From Conexibacter woesei Iso977N (lineage in GTDB: Bacteria; Actinomycetota; Thermoleophilia; Solirubrobacterales; Solirubrobacteraceae), in NCBI RefSeq assembly GCF_000424625.1, contig NZ_AUKG01000001.1:496001-560000 (forward strand): a DNA stretch of 64,000 nt, written 5' to 3'. How positions within the stretch are numbered: position 1 is the first letter of the stretch; each line of letters opens with the position of its first letter. A program made the position numbers and the translations under genes. The notes beneath the pieces were generated by a model. The model saw only the letters and a program-made list of their open reading frames with translations, ran no database searches and was not told the origin of the DNA. Shown here one piece after another: positions 21,694 through 35,560 of this stretch.

Positions 21694-22023
21694 CTAGGCC
21701 GCGGAGCTGAAGGAGGGCAGCGGCTTGGCCACCCCGGTGCCGGACTGGTAGCCGGCGGCGGCCGTGCGGCCGGTCTTCAGACGGCGCAGCTCGCCCGCCG
21801 TCTCGATCATGCCCTGCTTGATGACGGTGGCGCTCAGCGCCTGGAGGCGCACGGCCTCGCGCAGGTCGGCCATGGCCCACGCGGGGGCCTGCGCCGGCAG
21901 CAGGCTCAGGAGCACGTCGCGGCGCGCGTTGAGGTCCGCGAGGTCCTCCCAGCGGCCGTCGGTGCAGAGCGCGTGCTCCTCGCGGCCGAGGGCCACGAGC
22001 TGCGCGTAGATCTGGTGGCTCAT
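21694..22023 (-). CDS. FliT-like flagellar protein downstream of fliS
   Basis: 109 aa from the ATG overlapping the fliS stop (ATGA). Mostly helical, with an L-D-x-x-R-D-x-L-L-type segment (D-L-N-A-R-R-D-V-L-L-S-L-L) similar to FliT-family and other small export chaperones. The C-terminal 25 residues are Gly/Ser/Ala-rich. In many flagellar loci the gene after fliS encodes the FliD chaperone FliT; assignment rests on position, size and helical pattern. Confidence 0.65.
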   Translation of the reverse strand: MSHQIYAQLVALGREEHALCTDGRWEDLADLNARRDVLLSLLPAQAPAWAMADLREAVRLQALSATVIKQGMIETAGELRRLKTGRTAAAGYQSGTGVAKPLPSFSSAA

Positions 22024-22415
22024 GCCGAGGCGGGAGCGACGGCGGCGGCCTGCTGGGCCAGCGCGGCCCATGCCTCGCGCAGGTTGGACAGCAGCGCGAC
22101 GACCTGGGCGATCTTCTCGCCCTGGCGCTGGATGCGGGCCTCGATCAGCGTCTTCTTGCAGAAGATGTAGATCGCCTGCAGGCGATCGGCGATCTCGCCG
22201 GTGTCCATGTTCAGCGTCGCGAGGAGCTCGTCGAGGATCGCCTCGGCGCGGTTGAGCTTCTCGAAGGAGTGCAGCCAGGCGCCCTCGTTCATGGCGACCT
22301 CGGCCTGACGCAGGAAGCGCACGGCGCCGTCATAGAGCATCACGACGAGCTGCTCGGGAGAGGCGGTCAGGACCGCGGAGTCGCGGTAGGCCTGCGGGCT
22401 GGCGTAGGGGTTCAT
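22020..22415 (-). CDS. fliS: Flagellin export chaperone FliS
   Basis: 131 aa beginning N-P-Y-A-S-P-Q-A-Y-R and continuing S-P-E-Q-L-V-V-M-L-Y-D-G-A-V-R-F-L, the diagnostic FliS N-terminus, then four helices with L-N-R-A-x-x-I-L-D-E-L. Binds the C-terminus of flagellin and keeps it unfolded; in Bacillus it also antagonises FliW. Adjacent to fliD as usual. A weaker sigma-28-like element lies 35 nt upstream. Confidence 0.93.
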   Translation of the reverse strand: MNPYASPQAYRDSAVLTASPEQLVVMLYDGAVRFLRQAEVAMNEGAWLHSFEKLNRAEAILDELLATLNMDTGEIADRLQAIYIFCKKTLIEARIQRQGEKIAQVVALLSNLREAWAALAQQAAAVAPASA

Positions 22416-22493: not shown

Positions 22494-23870
22494 CTAGCTG
22501 GCCGTGAAGCTCGACAGCTTCGAGCCGGCCGCCTGGCTGTTGGCCATCGCGGTCTCCATCGCGGTGAACTGCTTGGTCAGCAGCTGCTGCTTGGAGTCCA
22601 TCCGGGCGTCGAAGGTCGTCAGCTTCGCCGCGAGGTCGGAGAGGTCGGAGTTGGTGGAGGTGATCCGGGCCTGGATCAGGCCCGTCGAGCCCTGGTAGTT
22701 CCTCAGGACGTTGCGGAACTGCTGCGCGAAGCCGTTGACGTTCGCGGTGCCGCCGAGGAGGCTGCGCACGGTCAGCGGGTCGGCGTCCAGGGCGGTCGAG
22801 AGCTTGGTCTCGTCGAGCGTGAGCTTGCCGTCGAGGGCGTCCTGGTTGATCGTGCCGCCGCTGGTCGACGCGCCGGTCGAGATGCCGATGTCGGCCAGCG
22901 ACCTCAGCGTGCCCGAGAGGCCCGGCACCGCGGCGCTGATCGTCGAGCGGAAGCTCGAGAGCATGTCGTTGAGGCCGGAGTCGCCGAACAGCGATCCCCT
23001 GACGATGTCGTCGGCCGCCGTGGCGTTGACCACCGGCGTGTCGGTCAGCGCGCCGCGACCGGCGGTCACGACGTCGTTGTAGGCCGAGACGAACGCCTTG
23101 ACCTTGGTGGTGATCGCGTCCTTGTCGGGACCGGGCGAGCCGACGGTCAGGGCTTCGGTCGTGCCCGCGGCGGTCTTGCCCTTGAGCACGAACTGGACGC
23201 CCGGCATGGCGTCCTTGATCGTGTTGGACTCGCGCTCGTACTGCGTGCCGTTGATCGTGAGCTTCGCGTTGGTGCCCGCGATCCGCTCGGTCTGGCTCCC
23301 GGCGCCGGCGCCGGAGATCGAGAAGCCCGACGACGCGCCGGTCGTCTTGGCGCTCAGGACGAGGCTGCCGTTGACGTTGACCGCGTAGAGGTTGCCGCCG
23401 GTGGCGCCGTTGATCGCCGAGACCGCGTCGTCGACGGTCGCGCCGGCCCTGAGGTCGACCGTCGAGCGCGGGGTGCCGTCGGCGTTGTTGATGACCATCT
23501 GGCCATCCGCCGTCGGGCTCGTGAACGACCACGTCTGGCGCTCGGCGGAGGCCAGCTGGTCGACCGAGACGTCGTAGCCGCCGGGAGGCGCGCCGCCGGT
23601 GCGCGAGACCGTGAACTTCGTCGTGTCGGTGGACTCGACGGTCTGCGTGTCGATCCAGGTCAGCGCCGACGACAGGTCGTCGTTGGCCGTCTTCAACGCC
23701 GTGAGCTTGGTGCTCAGGTCGTTGTAGATGCTGACCTTCTTGTTGTCGATCGCCTGGTCGTTGGTGATCTTGGTCCGCGGGATCTTCTCCGCGGCCATCA
23801 GCTGGTCGATGATCGACGCGGTGTCGAGGCCGGACACCAGGCCGCTCATCTGGATCGGGGGTGTGGACAT
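22494..23870 (-). CDS. fliD: Flagellar filament cap protein FliD
   Basis: 458 aa. N-terminal FliD domain starts Q-M-S-G-L-V-S-G-L-D-T-A-S-I-I-D-Q-L-M-A, the typical G-L-x-S-G-L-D-x-x-x-I-I-x-x-L motif. The C-terminal FliD domain (about 230-450) ends in helices T-S-T-N-S-D-L-S-D-L-A-A-K and M-E-T-A-M-A-N-S-Q-A. Thr/Ala/Gly-rich middle. Caps the filament and folds incoming flagellin. AAGGA lies before the ATG. Confidence 0.95.
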   Translation of the reverse strand: MSTPPIQMSGLVSGLDTASIIDQLMAAEKIPRTKITNDQAIDNKKVSIYNDLSTKLTALKTANDDLSSALTWIDTQTVESTDTTKFTVSRTGGAPPGGYDVSVDQLASAERQTWSFTSPTADGQMVINNADGTPRSTVDLRAGATVDDAVSAINGATGGNLYAVNVNGSLVLSAKTTGASSGFSISGAGAGSQTERIAGTNAKLTINGTQYERESNTIKDAMPGVQFVLKGKTAAGTTEALTVGSPGPDKDAITTKVKAFVSAYNDVVTAGRGALTDTPVVNATAADDIVRGSLFGDSGLNDMLSSFRSTISAAVPGLSGTLRSLADIGISTGASTSGGTINQDALDGKLTLDETKLSTALDADPLTVRSLLGGTANVNGFAQQFRNVLRNYQGSTGLIQARITSTNSDLSDLAAKLTTFDARMDSKQQLLTKQFTAMETAMANSQAAGSKLSSFTAS

Positions 23871-23887
23871 GGTTGTCCTTCGTTCTC

Positions 23888-24244
23888 CTACGCGGCCGGG
23901 GCCGGGTCGGGTTCGGTGCCGAAGAGCTCGCCGAGCGCGACGGGGCGCAGGACGCGGCCCTCGTCGTCGACCAGCGAGGCGACCACCCGGTTGGTGAGGC
24001 GATGCGTGTCGAACCGCACGCTCTGGCCGCGCTCCGACAGGTCGTCGGCGAGCTGCCCTGCGCGGCTGATGTCGTCCCAGACCTCGTCCGGGATCCTGTC
24101 GGGCCCGGTCATCCGGCGCTTGCGCGCGTCGGCGAGGTCGAAGACACGCGCGAACTCGCCGCTTGCCGCCGGCGCCTCAGGCGCTCGGTCGGCAGCGCGA
24201 AGGAAGGCCCCGTGGCCGATCCTCGTGGTCGCGTCGATGTCCAT
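23888..24244 (-). CDS. flaG: FlaG-like flagellar protein
   Basis: 118 aa from the ATG at 24244, chosen because AAAGGA sits 6 nt upstream. The C-terminal half reads V-R-F-D-T-H-R-L-T-N-R-V-V-A-S-L-V-D-D-E-G-R-V-L-R-P-V, following the FlaG pattern (L-x-F-x-x-x-x-x-x-x-x-x-V-x-V-V-D-x-x-T-G-E-V-I-R-x-I-P). FlaG genes normally precede fliD, as here. A longer upstream reading (to about 24399) is possible but has a weaker start. Confidence 0.7.
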   Translation of the reverse strand: MDIDATTRIGHGAFLRAADRAPEAPAASGEFARVFDLADARKRRMTGPDRIPDEVWDDISRAGQLADDLSERGQSVRFDTHRLTNRVVASLVDDEGRVLRPVALGELFGTEPDPAPAA

Positions 24245-24404: not shown

Positions 24405-26828
24405 TCAGGCGGCCGCCTGGGCCAGCTGGCGCGCCTCGGCGCGCATGATCTCGGCGTCGTCGTGCAGGCCCTGGGAGTCCGCGAGGGTCGCGAGGCCGAG
24501 CAGGACGCGCTCGTCCGGAGCGCCGAGCTTCTCGGCCACGCCGATCCACTCGCGGGCGGCGGACTCGCCGAAGCCACGGCGCAGGTAGACGCCCGCGAGC
24601 AGCTCGCGCTGCTCGCGCCAGGGCAGGTCGAGCCGGTCGACCACGCCGGCCAGCGCCTCGAACTCGTCGAAGCGCTCCAGCCGCGCGAGCGACTCGAGCA
24701 TGGCGGTGACCAGCGGCTGCGCCGCGGCCGGGACCGACACCGGGGCGCCGTCGCCGCCGCGCCACGCGCGGAACGCGGCGTGGTGACCGGACGGCAGGCC
24801 GGCGCTGCCGGCGTAGGCGAAGGCCGTCTCGACCAGCGCGGGGTCGGCCGGGGCGGCCAGGCGGGCGAAGAGCGCGGTCTGGGCGGCGACCGGCGCGTGC
24901 GGCGCGTCGGCCGGGACCAGCAGGGCGGTCGCGGCGGCGGCCGCCAGGTCGCCCTTGGACAGCTCGGCCTCGGCGAGCGCGACGCGCGCGGCGTGCGCGC
25001 CCGGCTGGGCCGCGAGCACGGCGCGCAGCTGCGTCTCGGCCTCGGCGATCGCGCCGGCCTCGTAGAACGGCACCGCCAGCAGGAAGCGCTGCGACGGCGT
25101 CGGGCTCGGGACGAGCTCCGCGACGCGGGCGACGACGTCGCCGGCCGGCACCCCGCGGCGCAGCAGGACGCGCACGTAGGGCTCGACGACGGCGACGAAC
25201 TGCGGGTGATGCTCCAGGACGTGCTCGAGATGCGCGGCGGCCTCGTCCAGACGGCCGTCCTCGATCAGCGTCTCGGCCAGGATGTTGCGGGCGTGGTAGG
25301 TGCCGACGCCGACGGTGGCGCTGTAGCGCGGCGGCGCGTCACCCATCGCCAGGCACTGCTCGAGCTTGGCGATCGCCTCGTCGCGGCGGCCGAGCGCGCG
25401 CTCCGCCAGGGCCTGCTCCAGGACGATGTCGGTGAAGCCGTCGAGCAGGCCCAGGACGGTGTCGCCCATCTCGAGGGCGTCGGTGTGGCGGCCGTTGGCG
25501 TTCAGGGCCTTGACCAGGCGCGCCGCCAGCGACGGGAAGAACCCCATCTCCAGGCGCTGAGGATCGCGCTCCAGCAGCGCCCACGCGCGGGCGAGGTGCG
25601 TCAGCGAGCCGGCGACGTCGCCGGCCGCGGCCTGCTCGGAGCCGAGGTTGAAGTGCAGGAACGGCGTGTCGACGCCCTCGGCCAGCTGGCGCTGCAGCAG
25701 CTCCAGGTTGCGCGTCTGCTTGCCCTTGGCGTCGCGGACCGCGCCGAGGTAGCCGAAGTGCTCGATGCGGACCTGCGAGTACTCGATGCGCTCGGGCAGG
25801 TCGGGCAGCTTGTGGGCGAACTGCTCGTGGACGCGCCCCTCGAAGCGGTACGACGCGCGATTGCGGAACAGGCGCAGGGCGTTGTGCTGGACGCCGACGC
25901 CGTCCTCGAGCTCGCCGACGTGGTTGGTCTCGACGAGGAAGATGCCCTCGCGCCAGGTGTGGCCGAGCAGCGCGCGGAGCTTCTCGCCCTCGCCCTCGTT
26001 GAGGAGCTCGTCGGCGTCGAGGTACATCAGCCAGTCGGACGTCGCGGCCTCGAGGCCGACGTTGCGCGCGGCGGCGAAGTCGCCGTCCCACTCGTGGTGC
26101 AGGACCGTCGCGCCGAAGCCCTCGGCGATCTCGACGGTGCGGTCGGTCGAGCCGGTGTCGACGACGATCAGCTCGTCGACGAAGTCCTTCACGGACGCGA
26201 GGCACTGCGGGAGCATCGACTCCTCGTCCTTGACGATCATGCACAGCGACACGGTCTGGCCGGTCGCCGGGACCGCCTTCTGCGCGAGGCGCTGGGCGCG
26301 CGGGCCGAGGTCGCGCAGCGCGCGCAGGACCTGCGGCGGGAGACCCTGCGGCGTCGTGATGCCGGCCTTGCGGCGGCGCTTGCACGCCTCGAGGTTGCCG
26401 GCGACGTCGGGCAGCTGGTCGTCGAGGCGGTGGGCGGCGCGGAACAGCGCCTCGGCCGCGACGACCGCGCCGAGCTCGTAGAAGAGGACGCCGGCGAAGT
26501 TCAGGAGGACCGGCTCGCGCGGGTTCTCGTCGAGCGCGTCCAGCGCGGCGACCGCGCCGGCCAGGAAGCGCTCGGCGGTCTGCGCGGGCGCGGAGGTGCC
26601 GTGGGAGAGGATCGACTCGATCAGCAGGCGGCGCGCCTGGTAGCGATCGTTGTCGTCGGTCAGCTTGGCGGCGCCGTCGGCGAGGACGCGCCAGCCCGCA
26701 AGGTCGTGGGCGTCCAGCAGCGACGCCGCGCGGTTGGTGACCGCGGCGACGGCGGCGGCGCCCGTGACCGGGGCGGCGGAGGTCTTCTTGGCCGGTCCGT
26801 CGACCGGCGCGACGAGGCGAAGCGCCAT
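24405..26828 (-). CDS. Large TPR-containing family 2 glycosyltransferase, probable flagellin/filament glycosylation enzyme
   Basis: 807 aa. A family 2 (GT-A) glycosyltransferase domain spans about 185-400: S-L-C-M-I-V-K-D-E-E-S-M-L then V-V-D-T-G-S-T-D-R-T and a D-A-D metal-binding motif in M-Y-L-D-A-D-E-L-L. It is flanked by helical repeat regions, N-terminal about 30-150 and C-terminal about 400-800, with TPR-like spacing and A-x-x-x-L/A-x-x-x-P patterns. No membrane segment is seen, so it should act in the cytosol. Such TPR-GT2 proteins resemble those modifying peptides or proteins. Location beside flaG-fliD-fliS and the exact sigma-28-like promoter suggest flagellin as substrate; this is inference. 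Confidence 0.8.
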   Translation of the reverse strand: MALRLVAPVDGPAKKTSAAPVTGAAAVAAVTNRAASLLDAHDLAGWRVLADGAAKLTDDNDRYQARRLLIESILSHGTSAPAQTAERFLAGAVAALDALDENPREPVLLNFAGVLFYELGAVVAAEALFRAAHRLDDQLPDVAGNLEACKRRRKAGITTPQGLPPQVLRALRDLGPRAQRLAQKAVPATGQTVSLCMIVKDEESMLPQCLASVKDFVDELIVVDTGSTDRTVEIAEGFGATVLHHEWDGDFAAARNVGLEAATSDWLMYLDADELLNEGEGEKLRALLGHTWREGIFLVETNHVGELEDGVGVQHNALRLFRNRASYRFEGRVHEQFAHKLPDLPERIEYSQVRIEHFGYLGAVRDAKGKQTRNLELLQRQLAEGVDTPFLHFNLGSEQAAAGDVAGSLTHLARAWALLERDPQRLEMGFFPSLAARLVKALNANGRHTDALEMGDTVLGLLDGFTDIVLEQALAERALGRRDEAIAKLEQCLAMGDAPPRYSATVGVGTYHARNILAETLIEDGRLDEAAAHLEHVLEHHPQFVAVVEPYVRVLLRRGVPAGDVVARVAELVPSPTPSQRFLLAVPFYEAGAIAEAETQLRAVLAAQPGAHAARVALAEAELSKGDLAAAAATALLVPADAPHAPVAAQTALFARLAAPADPALVETAFAYAGSAGLPSGHHAAFRAWRGGDGAPVSVPAAAQPLVTAMLESLARLERFDEFEALAGVVDRLDLPWREQRELLAGVYLRRGFGESAAREWIGVAEKLGAPDERVLLGLATLADSQGLHDDAEIMRAEARQLAQAAA

Positions 26829-26887
26829 GGGTGCTGAGTGCTCCTTGGAGGGGAAGGAAGCGGCAGGCGAGAGCCCGCTCAACCGTT

Positions 26888-26914
26888 GGTTCGGCCATTG
26901 GCGGTTTGAGTTGA
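26888..26914 (-). promoter_or_regulatory. Sigma-28-like promoter upstream of the TPR glycosyltransferase
   Basis: Minus strand: TCAA, exactly 15 nt, GCCGAACC. The -10-like box ends 60 nt before the glycosyltransferase ATG. Places this gene in the same regulon as the flagellar genes. Confidence 0.65.
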
Positions 26915-26921
26915 GCGAACG

Positions 26922-26958
26922 GCGAGCAGTTGTCAGCACGCGGTCGCCGGCTGCTCGC
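26922..26958. promoter_or_regulatory. Spaced perfect inverted repeat in the divergent region (operator candidate)
   Basis: GCGAGCAG (26922-26929) and CTGCTCGC (26951-26958) are perfect inverted copies 21 nt apart, lying immediately upstream of the glycosyltransferase promoter and about 215 nt before the sigma factor gene. It could be a dimeric-regulator site serving one or both divergent genes, or an RNA stem; unproven. Confidence 0.35.
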
Positions 26959-27173: not shown

Positions 27174-27992
27174 ATGAGCCTCGCCACCGCACAGACCTCC
27201 AAGCGCCGCCTCTCCTCCGAGGACACGCTCGCGCTCTGGAAGGAGTACCGCCGCACCAACGACCGCGCCACGCGCGATCGCCTGGTCCTCACCTTCGCCC
27301 CGCTGGTCAAGTACATCGTCTACAAGAAGGTCCGCGAGATGCCGGCCCGCTGTGAGGTCGAGGACTTCATCAGCTGCGGCCTCGAGGCCCTGATCCAGTC
27401 GATCGAGCGCTACGACCCGGCCAAGGGCGCCACGCTCGAGCAGTACGCCTGGACCCGCATCCACGGCGCCGTCCTCGACGAGCTGCGCCGCCAGGACTGG
27501 GCCCCGCGCTCCGTCCGCCGCTGGGAGCGCGACATCGAGCGCGCCGCCGACGAGTTCACCACCCTGCACGGCCGTCGTCCCACGCAGCCCGAGCTGGCCG
27601 AGTCGATGGGCACCACCGTCGCCGAGCTGCGCAAGCGCCGCGACGAGATCACGCAGTCCGACCTGACGTCGCTGAACACGCTCGTCCTCTCCGACGACGA
27701 GACGACGATCGAGCGCATCGACACGATCGCCTCGACCGACGTGTCGGCCGACCCGCTGCACGCCGCCGCCAAGGAGCAGGCCAAGGACAAGTTCCGCGAG
27801 GCCTTCTCCCGCCTGCCGCAGCGTGAGCGCGAGGTCGCCGTCCTGCTCTACGTCAAGAACATGACGCTGGCCGAGATCGGCGAGATCCTCGGCGTCTCCG
27901 AGTCGCGCGTCTGCCAGATCCACGGTCAGCTCAAGAAGACGCTGCGCACCGTGCTGGACGACGACGCCCCGCTGTTCCAGGCTGTCGCTTAG
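27174..27992 (+). CDS. fliA: Flagellar sigma-28 factor (FliA/WhiG family)
   Basis: 272 aa from the ATG at 27174, with AAGGAG 9 nt upstream. Region 2 (about 25-100) includes R-D-R-L-V-L-T-F-A-P-L-V-K-Y-I-V and D-F-I-S-C-G-L-E-A-L-I-Q-S-I-E-R-Y-D-P; region 3 (about 118-160) L-H-G-R-R-P-T-Q-P-E-L-A-E; region 4 (about 210-262) F-S-R-L-P-Q-R-E-R-E-V-A-V-L-L-Y with helix-turn-helix L-A-E-I-G-E-I-L-G-V-S-E-S-R-V-C-Q-I. Region 1.1 is absent, as in sigma-28. No anti-sigma FlgM is recognisable in the window. Likely reader of the TCAA-N15-GCCGA elements. Confidence 0.93.
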   Translation: MSLATAQTSKRRLSSEDTLALWKEYRRTNDRATRDRLVLTFAPLVKYIVYKKVREMPARCEVEDFISCGLEALIQSIERYDPAKGATLEQYAWTRIHGAVLDELRRQDWAPRSVRRWERDIERAADEFTTLHGRRPTQPELAESMGTTVAELRKRRDEITQSDLTSLNTLVLSDDETTIERIDTIASTDVSADPLHAAAKEQAKDKFREAFSRLPQREREVAVLLYVKNMTLAEIGEILGVSESRVCQIHGQLKKTLRTVLDDDAPLFQAVA

Positions 27993-28071: not shown

Positions 28072-28349
28072 CGTTTCGCCCTTTCCAAGCCGTAGGCCCA
28101 CACCAGGACCTCGGCCACCGCGGCGAAGAGCTCGGGCGGGATCTCCTGCTCGAGCTCGAGCCGTGCCAGGGCCTCCGCCAACGCGGGGTCCTCGCGGATC
28201 GCGACGCCCTGCTCGCGGGCGATCTCGACGATCTTGTCGGCGATCAGGCCCGCGCCGGCCGCCACGACCTTCGGCGCGCCGTCGCCGCCCTGGTCGTACC
28301 TCAGCGCCGCGGCCCGCCGCGGCTTCTCCGGCCTCTGGCCGTCAGACAC
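28062..28349 (-). CDS. Stand-alone FlhB C-terminal-domain homologue (YlqH/FlhX type)
   Basis: 95 aa matching only the cytoplasmic FlhB_C region: A-A-A-L-R-Y-D-Q, A-P-K-V-V-A-A-G-A-G-L-I-A-D-K-I-V-E-I-A-R-E-Q-G-V, then P-x-L-A-E-A-L-A-R-L-E-L-E-Q-E-I-P-P-E-L-F-x-A-V-A-E-V-L-x-W. The autocleavage motif N-P-T-H of true FlhB is missing, as in other stand-alone FlhB-like proteins. Such proteins can substitute for FlhB-C in substrate switching. Overlaps the FliK-like gene by 8 nt. Confidence 0.85.
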   Translation of the reverse strand: MSDGQRPEKPRRAAALRYDQGGDGAPKVVAAGAGLIADKIVEIAREQGVAIREDPALAEALARLELEQEIPPELFAAVAEVLVWAYGLERAKRSP

Positions 28350-28953
28350 GGGCGTTGACCGTCACGTCGCGCGGGTGGACCGTGACGAGCACCGGCCCGC
28401 CGGTCGCCCGGACCAGCGCGTCCTGCAGGGCGCCCGCGTTCTGGGCGACCGTCCACGCCGGGTCGCCGCCGGACACGTGCACCGCCGCCGACTGCGCGTC
28501 GACCCGGACGTCGAGGCGCCCGAGCGTCGGCGAGTCGTAGCGGACGACGACCGACTTCGCGGGCGTCGCCCCGCCGCGCCTGGCGGCCTGCTCGCGCTCC
28601 TCGACGTGGATCCGGGCGAGGATCCCGCCGGGCAGCATCAGCTGGTAGGCATCGGCCGGGACGGTCGGAGATGCGTCGGCCTGCTGAGCGTTCTGCAGCT
28701 GTGGTGCGCCCGGGGGTTCCACGACGCGCAGGTGCAGGCGCTCGGTGCTCGCCTCCTCGACGCGCAGCCGCAGCACCTGCCCGGCGATGACGCCCTCCGG
28801 CAGCTGGGCCTGCATCCGGACCCCGGCGAGCACCAGCGTCCTGGGATCGAGCACCCGCGCCTGGACGACGACGCCCGGCACGAGCCTGACGTCGGGCAGC
28901 AGACCGCGCAGCAGGACGAGGCTGATGGGCGCGGCGCCGGACATGTCCGGCAA
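28342..28953 (-). CDS. FliK-like (YlqG-type) flagellar hook-length-control-related protein
   Basis: 203 aa if the TTG at 28953 is used, 200 aa from the ATG at 28944. The N-terminal half is beta-rich; the last 75 residues read L-G-R-L-D-V-R-V-D-A-Q-S-A-A-V-H-V, then A-L-Q-D-A-L-V-R-A-T-G-G-P-V-L-V-T-V, resembling the C-terminal domain of FliK. In Bacillus ylqG-ylqH encode the same pair next to the flagellar cluster. No membrane segment or signal peptide. The start codon lies inside a 16-nt perfect palindrome. Function inferred from pairing with the FlhB-C homologue. Confidence 0.6.
   Translation of the reverse strand: MPDMSGAAPISLVLLRGLLPDVRLVPGVVVQARVLDPRTLVLAGVRMQAQLPEGVIAGQVLRLRVEEASTERLHLRVVEPPGAPQLQNAQQADASPTVPADAYQLMLPGGILARIHVEEREQAARRGGATPAKSVVVRYDSPTLGRLDVRVDAQSAAVHVSGGDPAWTVAQNAGALQDALVRATGGPVLVTVHPRDVTVNARV
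28936..28951. promoter_or_regulatory. 16-nt perfect palindrome over the FliK-like gene start
   Basis: GCCGGACATGTCCGGC is fully self-complementary and contains the candidate ATG of the FliK-like gene in its centre. It lies 28 nt upstream of the flgF promoter element on the other strand. May be a DNA operator or may hide the start codon in mRNA; could also be chance. Confidence 0.35.
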
Positions 28954-34738: not shown

Positions 34739-34756
34739 AGGAAAGGACAAAGGATG
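34739..34756 (+). promoter_or_regulatory. Flagellin leader with GGA repeats over the ribosome binding site
   Basis: Three GGA triplets (34740-34742, 34745-34747, 34752-34754) occupy the Shine-Dalgarno and initiation region, the last overlapping the flagellin ATG. In Bacillus CsrA represses hag through two such sites. The 109-nt csrA-flagellin gap shows no convincing sigma-28-like element. Confidence 0.45.
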
Positions 34757-35560
34757 TCCCTTCGCATCACCCACAACGTCGAGGCAATGAATGCGGCTCG
34801 GAATCTCCAGGCGAACACCGCCAAGATCTCCGCGTCGATGGAGAAGCTCTCCTCCGGCTACCGCATCAACCGCGCAGCCGACGACGCCGCCGGCCTCGGT
34901 ATCTCCGAGTCCATGCGGTCGCAGATCCGCGGCCTCGCTCAGGCTCAGCGCAACATCCAGGACGGCGTGTCCATGGTGCAGACGGCGGAAGGCAACCTCG
35001 ACGAGGTGCACTCCATGCTGCAGCGCGTCCGCGAGCTCGCCGTGCAGTACAAGAACGGCTCGCTGGACAACAACGCCCGCACCTCGATCCAGAACGAGGT
35101 CAACCAGCTCGCGTCCGAGATCGGCCGCATCGGCTCGCAGGCGTCGTTCAACGGCATCAACCTGCTCGACGGCACGGCGACCGTGTCGTTCCAGGTCGGC
35201 GCCAACGACGGCGAGCAGATCGGGATCACGTTCCTGAACCTCTCGACCACGGTCGGCACGTCCTACGCCCAGCTCTCGCAGACGGGCGCCACCGACATCT
35301 CGGAGATCGACGCGGCCATCACCGCCGTCTCCACGGCCCGCGGCCAGATGGGCGCGGTCCAGAACCGCCTCGACCACACCCTCTCGGTGTCCGCGGCCTA
35401 CCAGGAGAACCTCACCTCGGCCGAGTCGCGCATCCGCGACGTCGACATGGCCGACGAGATGGTGAACCTGACGAAGATGCAGGTCCTGCAGCAGGCCGGC
35501 ACGGCGATGCTCGCCCAGGCCAACCAGAGCCCGCAGTCCGTCCTGAAGCTCCTCGGGTAG
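34754..35560 (+). CDS. hag: Flagellin
   Basis: 268 aa. N-terminal D0/D1 region L-R-I-T-H-N-V-E-A-M-N-A-A-R-N-L and S-S-G-Y-R-I-N-R-A-A-D-D-A-A-G-L-G-I-S-E-S-M-R; C-terminal D1/D0 region E-S-R-I-R-D-V-D-M-A-D-E-M-V and V-L-Q-Q-A-G-T-A-M-L-A-Q-A-N-Q-S-P-Q-S-V-L-K-L-L. The variable D2/D3 region is reduced to about 80 residues, so the filament should be thin like that of Bacillus. Several Ser/Thr in the D1 loops would be available for O-glycosylation. Single flagellin gene in the window. Confidence 0.96.
   Translation: MSLRITHNVEAMNAARNLQANTAKISASMEKLSSGYRINRAADDAAGLGISESMRSQIRGLAQAQRNIQDGVSMVQTAEGNLDEVHSMLQRVRELAVQYKNGSLDNNARTSIQNEVNQLASEIGRIGSQASFNGINLLDGTATVSFQVGANDGEQIGITFLNLSTTVGTSYAQLSQTGATDISEIDAAITAVSTARGQMGAVQNRLDHTLSVSAAYQENLTSAESRIRDVDMADEMVNLTKMQVLQQAGTAMLAQANQSPQSVLKLLG

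What the first reader, a model, noticed from the sequence alone, without database searches (positions are those of the whole stretch)
24405..26958. Large TPR-GT2 glycosyltransferase wired into the flagellar regulon
An 807-aa soluble protein with a GT-A family 2 core flanked by TPR-like repeats lies next to flaG-fliD-fliS and has an exact sigma-28-like promoter. No Maf or other usual flagellin glycosyltransferase, and no sugar-nucleotide genes, are in the window. This may be a flagellin or cap-protein glycosylation enzyme of a type little described in actinobacteria, with the repeats holding the unfolded export substrate.
Basis: partly seen in the sequence, partly recalled or inferred. Interest (0 to 1): 0.65.

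Follow-up and report, generated by a model that had tools for sequence, protein, structure and literature searches.

The report
Flagellin-decorating sugar transferase, GmaR-like
A gene inside the flagellar cluster of a soil actinobacterium encodes an enzyme that most likely attaches sugars to the flagellar filament protein before export; its kind is known from Listeria and Clostridium, and this work shows that relatives sit in the flagellar clusters of many actinobacteria, where I found no description of it.

Summary
Window 24405-26828 (-) encodes an 807-aa GT2 glycosyltransferase with TPR-type repeats on both sides, between fliA and a flaG-like gene-fliD-fliS. The nearest solved structure is the glycosyltransferase domain of GmaR (phmmer E=2.7e-34; family profile E=1.8e-63), the bifunctional flagellin O-GlcNAc transferase of Listeria; SunS is next. 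In the same bacterial family, 47 of 60 flagellin-bearing genomes carry an orthologue and 0 of 61 flagellin-free genomes do (Fisher P=5e-22). The gene stays beside fliA/fliD/fliS in 17 of 20 relatives read; in one genus it lies directly downstream of flagellin. A sigma-28-like element (TCA-N15..17-GCCGA) precedes 13 of 21 orthologues (0.25 expected) and other flagellar genes. Best reading: a cytoplasmic GmaR-type flagellin glycosyltransferase that probably adds one or a few HexNAc to Ser/Thr near the D1 tip, with TPRs gripping flagellin. GmaR's antirepressor region was not matched, so the MogR switch is not implied. Donor sugar and acceptor are inferred; FliD as acceptor is not excluded. Verdict: real, a new member of a known kind, apparently undescribed in Actinomycetota. 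Structure prediction of the GT domain failed for want of an alignment.

The parts
24405..26828 (-). GT2-TPR glycosyltransferase gene, 807 aa
   Evidence: orthologues in 47 of 121 family genomes
25608..26258 (-). GT-A family 2 core (about residues 191-407): DTGSTD 224, DF..ARN 250-256, DAD 271-273, RVHEQ 332-336, HxGY 357-360, R373 N374
   Evidence: Pfam; GmaR and SunS alignments; invariant or nearly invariant in 31 homologues; positions
26274..26756 (-). N-terminal TPR-like helical region (about residues 25-185)
   Evidence: model helices within 24-185; TPRs scored in orthologue L093
24408..25607 (-). C-terminal TPR superhelix (about residues 408-807)
   Evidence: Pfam TPR_19/TPR_16; model helices and Foldseek matches to O-GlcNAc transferase TPR domain
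26889..26914 (-). sigma-28-like promoter TCAA-N16-GCCGAAC, 86 bases before the ATG
23886..24242 (-). flaG-like gene between the glycosyltransferase and fliD (approximate coordinates)
   Evidence: translation; found at the same place in several relatives; no Pfam hit
22494..23870 (-). fliD, filament cap
   Evidence: Pfam FliD_N/FliD_C
22020..22415 (-). fliS, flagellin chaperone
   Evidence: Pfam FliS E=1e-34
27174..27992 (+). fliA/whiG-type flagellar sigma factor, divergent
   Evidence: NCBIfam FliA_WhiG above cut-off
34754..35560 (+). flagellin, the likely acceptor; candidate sites are Ser/Thr in LLDGTATVSFQVGANDGEQIGITFLNLSTTVGTSY
   Evidence: Pfam Flagellin_N/C; sequence

Best explanation
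The gene encodes a cytoplasmic flagellin O-glycosyltransferase of the GmaR type. It is expressed with the late flagellar genes from a FliA-type promoter. Its GT-A domain transfers a sugar, most likely GlcNAc from UDP-GlcNAc, to Ser/Thr of newly made flagellin around the D1 tip, before FliS hands the subunit to the export apparatus. The TPR arms on both sides of the GT domain select and hold the flagellin. Shown here: homology, catalytic motifs, flagellar linkage, co-occurrence with flagellin, promoter element. Inferred: the donor, the acceptor, the timing and the role of the TPRs.
For: GmaR GT domain is the best solved relative (E=2.7e-34; profile: GT domain E=1.8e-63, TPR part of GmaR E=2.6e-41), far above any other GT2 of the same genome (34 bits). 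GT-A motifs are invariant or nearly so in 31 homologues. Orthologue in 47/60 flagellin-bearing and 0/61 flagellin-free genomes of the family. Gene kept beside fliD-fliS, mostly with fliA divergent, in 17 of 20 loci and directly downstream of flagellin in the other three; phylum-wide 28/60 versus 14/336, and most distant relatives also lie beside fliC/fliD/fliS. Sigma-28-like element before 13/21 orthologues against 0.25 expected by shuffling; the same element precedes flagellin and flgF in relatives (read). No PF01973 in the genome; NeuB missing in 38 of 47 carriers, which disfavours a nonulosonate donor. GmaR transfers GlcNAc to flagellin (PMC9638930); the C. difficile glycosyltransferase CD0240, next to fliC, adds GlcNAc to peptides including LLDGTSSTIR (PMC10714395); window flagellin has the similar LLDGTATVSF.
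Against: Thirteen flagellin-bearing genomes have no full orthologue. Nine of these look truly without it (seven in one genus, with several flagellins), so the enzyme is dispensable. Ser/Thr content of the flagellin centre does not differ between carriers and non-carriers (P=0.41). The gene sits nearer to fliD than to fliC in this genome. No biochemical data. GT-domain models were of low confidence.
Confidence: 0.8

Rival explanations
1. The acceptor is the cap protein FliD (or a hook-associated protein), not flagellin.
For: In most Solirubrobacteraceae loci read the gene is beside flaG-fliD-fliS and about 8 kb from fliC.
Against: In one genus (L043-L045, L064) the gene follows flagellin directly and fliD is not nearby; in distant relatives the order is fliC-GT-fliD. 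The characterised relatives modify flagellin (PMC9638930, PMC10714395).
Confidence: 0.1
2. It is mainly a regulator, like the antirepressor half of GmaR, with the glycosyltransferase fold used as a scaffold.
For: GmaR is bifunctional (PMC9638930, PMC3150276).
Against: GT motifs are invariant, so catalysis appears to be under selection. Profile homology to GmaR stops at chain residue 286 of 7x9r (about GmaR residue 420) and does not cover its C-terminal antirepressor domain. MogR is described only in Listeria and the B. cereus group (PMC7793685); the PF12181 search found none here, but its controls did not ring either.
Confidence: 0.05
3. It extends or adds a nonulosonate-based or longer glycan on flagellin, as in Maf- or Aeromonas-type systems.
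For: The genome has a NeuB. Some distant relatives are fused to extra GT2, GT4 and methyltransferase domains.
Against: No PF01973 Maf; NeuB presence does not follow the gene (9/47 versus 14/74, P=1); no sugar genes recognised beside the gene in the window.
Confidence: 0.1

Closest known systems
GmaR of Listeria monocytogenes (PDB 22ao/22ap GT domain; 7x9r/7x9s TPR and antirepressor parts)
   Same: GT2 domain followed by TPRs, flagellar regulon, GT motifs; best solved relative
   Different: Extra N-terminal TPR-like region of about 190 aa; antirepressor region not matched; MogR not known outside Listeria and the B. cereus group
CD0240 of Clostridioides difficile and GT2-TPR flagellin glycosyltransferases proposed in Clostridium (PMC10714395, PMC13317340)
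   Same: Single GT beside fliC; in Clostridium predicted from a GT2 domain plus TPR repeats
   Different: No genes of the cd0241-0244 (phosphothreonine) type recognised beside this gene; direct sequence comparison with CD0240 not done
SunS S-glycosyltransferase (TIGR04195; PDB 7msp)
   Same: Same GT2 subfamily plus first C-terminal helices
   Different: Bacteriocin-peptide substrate; score 77 against a cut-off of 350; not flagellar
FlmG of Caulobacter (PMC7591256)
   Same: TPR arm plus GT arm in one cytoplasmic flagellin O-glycosyltransferase
   Different: GT-B fold, pseudaminic acid, NeuB dependent

Membership tests
GmaR-type flagellin O-GlcNAc transferase | GT-A family 2 domain closest to GmaR among solved structures, with catalytic motifs | tested here: met
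GmaR-type flagellin O-GlcNAc transferase | TPR domain following the GT domain, homologous to that of GmaR | tested here: met
   7x9r E=2.6e-41 over profile positions 316-602
GmaR-type flagellin O-GlcNAc transferase | Encoded with flagellar genes under flagellar control | tested here: met
   synteny and promoter motif; expression itself not measured
GmaR-type flagellin O-GlcNAc transferase | Transfers GlcNAc to flagellin | not testable with these tools
   needs mass spectrometry or enzyme assay
GmaR-type flagellin O-GlcNAc transferase | C-terminal antirepressor domain that binds MogR | tested here: inconclusive
   7x9r match ends at chain residue 286; MogR not found but controls silent
SunS peptide S-glycosyltransferase (TIGR04195) | Curated equivalog cut-off of 350 bits | tested here: not met
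   77 bits
Maf flagellin glycosyltransferase | PF01973 domain | tested here: not met
   the protein has no such Pfam match; the domain is absent from the whole genome
FlmG-type | GT-B catalytic domain | tested here: not met
   GT domain is GT2/GT-A

The most novel reading that the evidence does not exclude
Flagellin glycosylation by GT2-TPR enzymes is an ancient, general feature of actinobacterial flagella, with the N-terminal TPR arm as a second substrate clamp not present in GmaR, so that flagellin is held from both sides of the active site; in one lineage the module is fused with three further sugar- and methyl-transferring domains into a one-polypeptide glycan builder.
Probability: 0.35. 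Interest if true: 0.6.

Novelty: new member of a known kind. Interest (0 to 1): 0.42.

Why it matters
It predicts glycosylated flagellin across many flagellated Actinomycetota, a phylum whose recent flagellar survey (PMC10746217) does not use the word stem 'glycosyl' in its main text. It gives a single-gene, directly testable enzyme with a clean set of natural carriers and non-carriers, and a comparison for how TPR arms select flagellin.

Tried and rejected
AlphaFold of the whole protein and of the GT domain with a two-sequence alignment gave poor GT models (mean pLDDT 56 and 38), so fold matches were used only for the TPR part. Orthologues from whole genomes were not handed to the folding tool because its stated rule does not allow them. 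Ser/Thr enrichment in flagellins of carriers: no difference. NeuB as partner: no association. The genome-contig scan with the single protein found one relative only. MogR search uninformative. The papers describing the original GmaR enzyme and the Actinoplanes flagellar cluster were not held, so the GlcNAc activity is cited from PMC9638930 and the FliA consensus of Actinoplanes could not be compared. A Nei-Gojobori-like estimate gave dN/dS of about 0.5-0.65 against two congeners; with 71% G+C codon bias this is crude and was not used.

Full report
What is there. The minus-strand ORF 24405-26828 encodes 807 aa. The finding's end coordinate, 26958, adds the upstream region. Pfam finds Glycos_transf_2 at residues 194-293 and TPR repeats at about 515-650. 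The predicted model, though weak overall (mean pLDDT 56.5), gives helix hairpins at 24-185 and 405-806 with moderate to good confidence over much of their length, and Foldseek places the repeats with TPR superhelices, the O-GlcNAc transferase TPR domain first. An orthologue (L093) has scored TPRs in front of the GT domain.

Neighbourhood. Upstream and divergent is a FliA/WhiG sigma factor (27174-27992); downstream on the same strand are a flaG-like ORF, fliD and fliS. The flaG-like ORF has no Pfam match. The flagellin gene is at 34754-35560 behind fliW and csrA, and a second flagellin lies outside the window at G000:C1:487135.

Relatives of the protein. phmmer against solved structures gives GmaR (22ao) E=2.7e-34, then SunS (7msp) 1.5e-21. 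A profile of 31 homologues gives the GmaR GT domain E=1.8e-63, the GmaR TPR part (7x9r) 2.6e-41 over profile positions 316-602, and SunS 4.5e-37. The other GT2 hits in the same genome score only 34 and 19 bits and have other domain contents. Across 31 homologues the motifs DxGSxD (224-229), W..DF..ARN (247-256), DAD (271-273), HEQ (334-336), GY (359-360) and K..RN (370-374) are invariant or nearly so. The enzyme is thus very likely catalytic and of the GmaR/SunS group.

Link to flagella. In 121 genomes of the family, full orthologues occur in 47 of 60 genomes with a flagellin and in none of 61 without (Fisher P=5e-22; genomes are related, so this P ignores shared descent). Two more carry fragments at contig ends (G092, G096). 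Of the remaining 11, G007 and G071 also lack a detectable fliD, seven are one genus (g12), and G016 and G120 are single cases. In 20 loci read around the gene, 17 keep it beside fliD/fliS, most with fliA divergent; in the other three (one genus) it lies directly downstream of flagellin on the same strand. In flagellate genomes without it (L061, L066) fliA and fliD-fliS are neighbours with no such gene between them. Phylum-wide, at E<=1e-20, 28 of 60 flagellin genomes and 14 of 336 others have a relative, and most distant relatives read lie among fliC, fliD and fliS.

Promoter. TCAA-N16-GCCGAAC stands 86 bases before the ATG. The loose form TCA-N15..17-GCCGA is found within 150 bases upstream of 13 of 21 orthologues, against 0.25 expected from dinucleotide shuffles and 2.4% of background tiles. 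The same element, most often TCAA-N16-GCCGATCA or GCCGACCA, precedes flgF in many relatives and, in loci L043 and L044, both flagellin and this gene (read). This supports expression with the late flagellar genes; dependence on FliA is inferred.

Mechanism. GmaR transfers GlcNAc to flagellin (PMC9638930). In C. difficile the glycosyltransferase CD0240 attaches GlcNAc to FliC, including the peptide LLDGTSSTIR (PMC10714395). In Clostridium, GT2 domains with TPR repeats were taken as marks of flagellin glycosyltransferases (PMC13317340). In Caulobacter the TPR arm of FlmG binds flagellin (PMC7591256). From these I infer that this enzyme acts in the cytoplasm on flagellin around the D1 tip (LLDGTATVSFQVGAND... 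in the window flagellin), with TPR arms as the acceptor-holding part. A nonulosonate donor is unlikely: there is no PF01973 Maf, and NeuB is absent from 38 of 47 carriers and unrelated to the gene's presence. GlcNAc is my best guess for the donor (about 0.5). That the substrate is held unfolded is not shown.

What does not fit. Flagellins of carriers and non-carriers do not differ in Ser/Thr share of the centre, and loss of the gene is tolerated. FliD as acceptor cannot be excluded from sequence.

Novelty. The kind of enzyme is known (GmaR, CD0240). What seems new is its presence as a frequent part of flagellar clusters in Actinomycetota; the 2023 survey of actinobacterial flagella contains no 'glycosyl' in its main text, and my literature searches found no description, within the limits of an open-access library. 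The close relative with a public name is a Conexibacter MAG, so the organism is probably a Conexibacter-like member of the Solirubrobacteraceae (inference).

Noticed in passing
L097:8417-13579, L099:124-5235, L103:4847-10009 (genomes G168, G319, G235; also G255, G214): A single ORF of about 1704-1721 aa fuses the flagellar GT2-TPR module to an N-terminal GT2, TPRs, a GT4 and a methyltransferase (Pfam on L097), near flagellin or fliD-fliS: possibly a one-polypeptide builder of a methylated flagellin glycan.
   Followed up: partly
L110:382-4851: A 1490-aa ORF with three GT2 stretches and a GT4 lies next to flagellin and fliD in another actinobacterial family.
   Followed up: no
L057, L113, L114, L065 (genus g12): Flagellate genomes without this glycosyltransferase carry up to about ten tandem flagellin genes whose central region is about 16-18 aa longer than in carriers.
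   Followed up: partly
G000:C1:1095624 and 1107613 (outside the window): A WsaF-like GT2/GT4 gene and a NeuB-type nonulosonate synthase lie within about 12 kb of each other, nearly 0.6 Mb from the flagellar cluster: probably a separate surface-glycan locus.
   Followed up: no
window 28342-28953 and 21694-22071: Two ORFs that recur in flagellar loci of relatives have no Pfam match.
   Followed up: no
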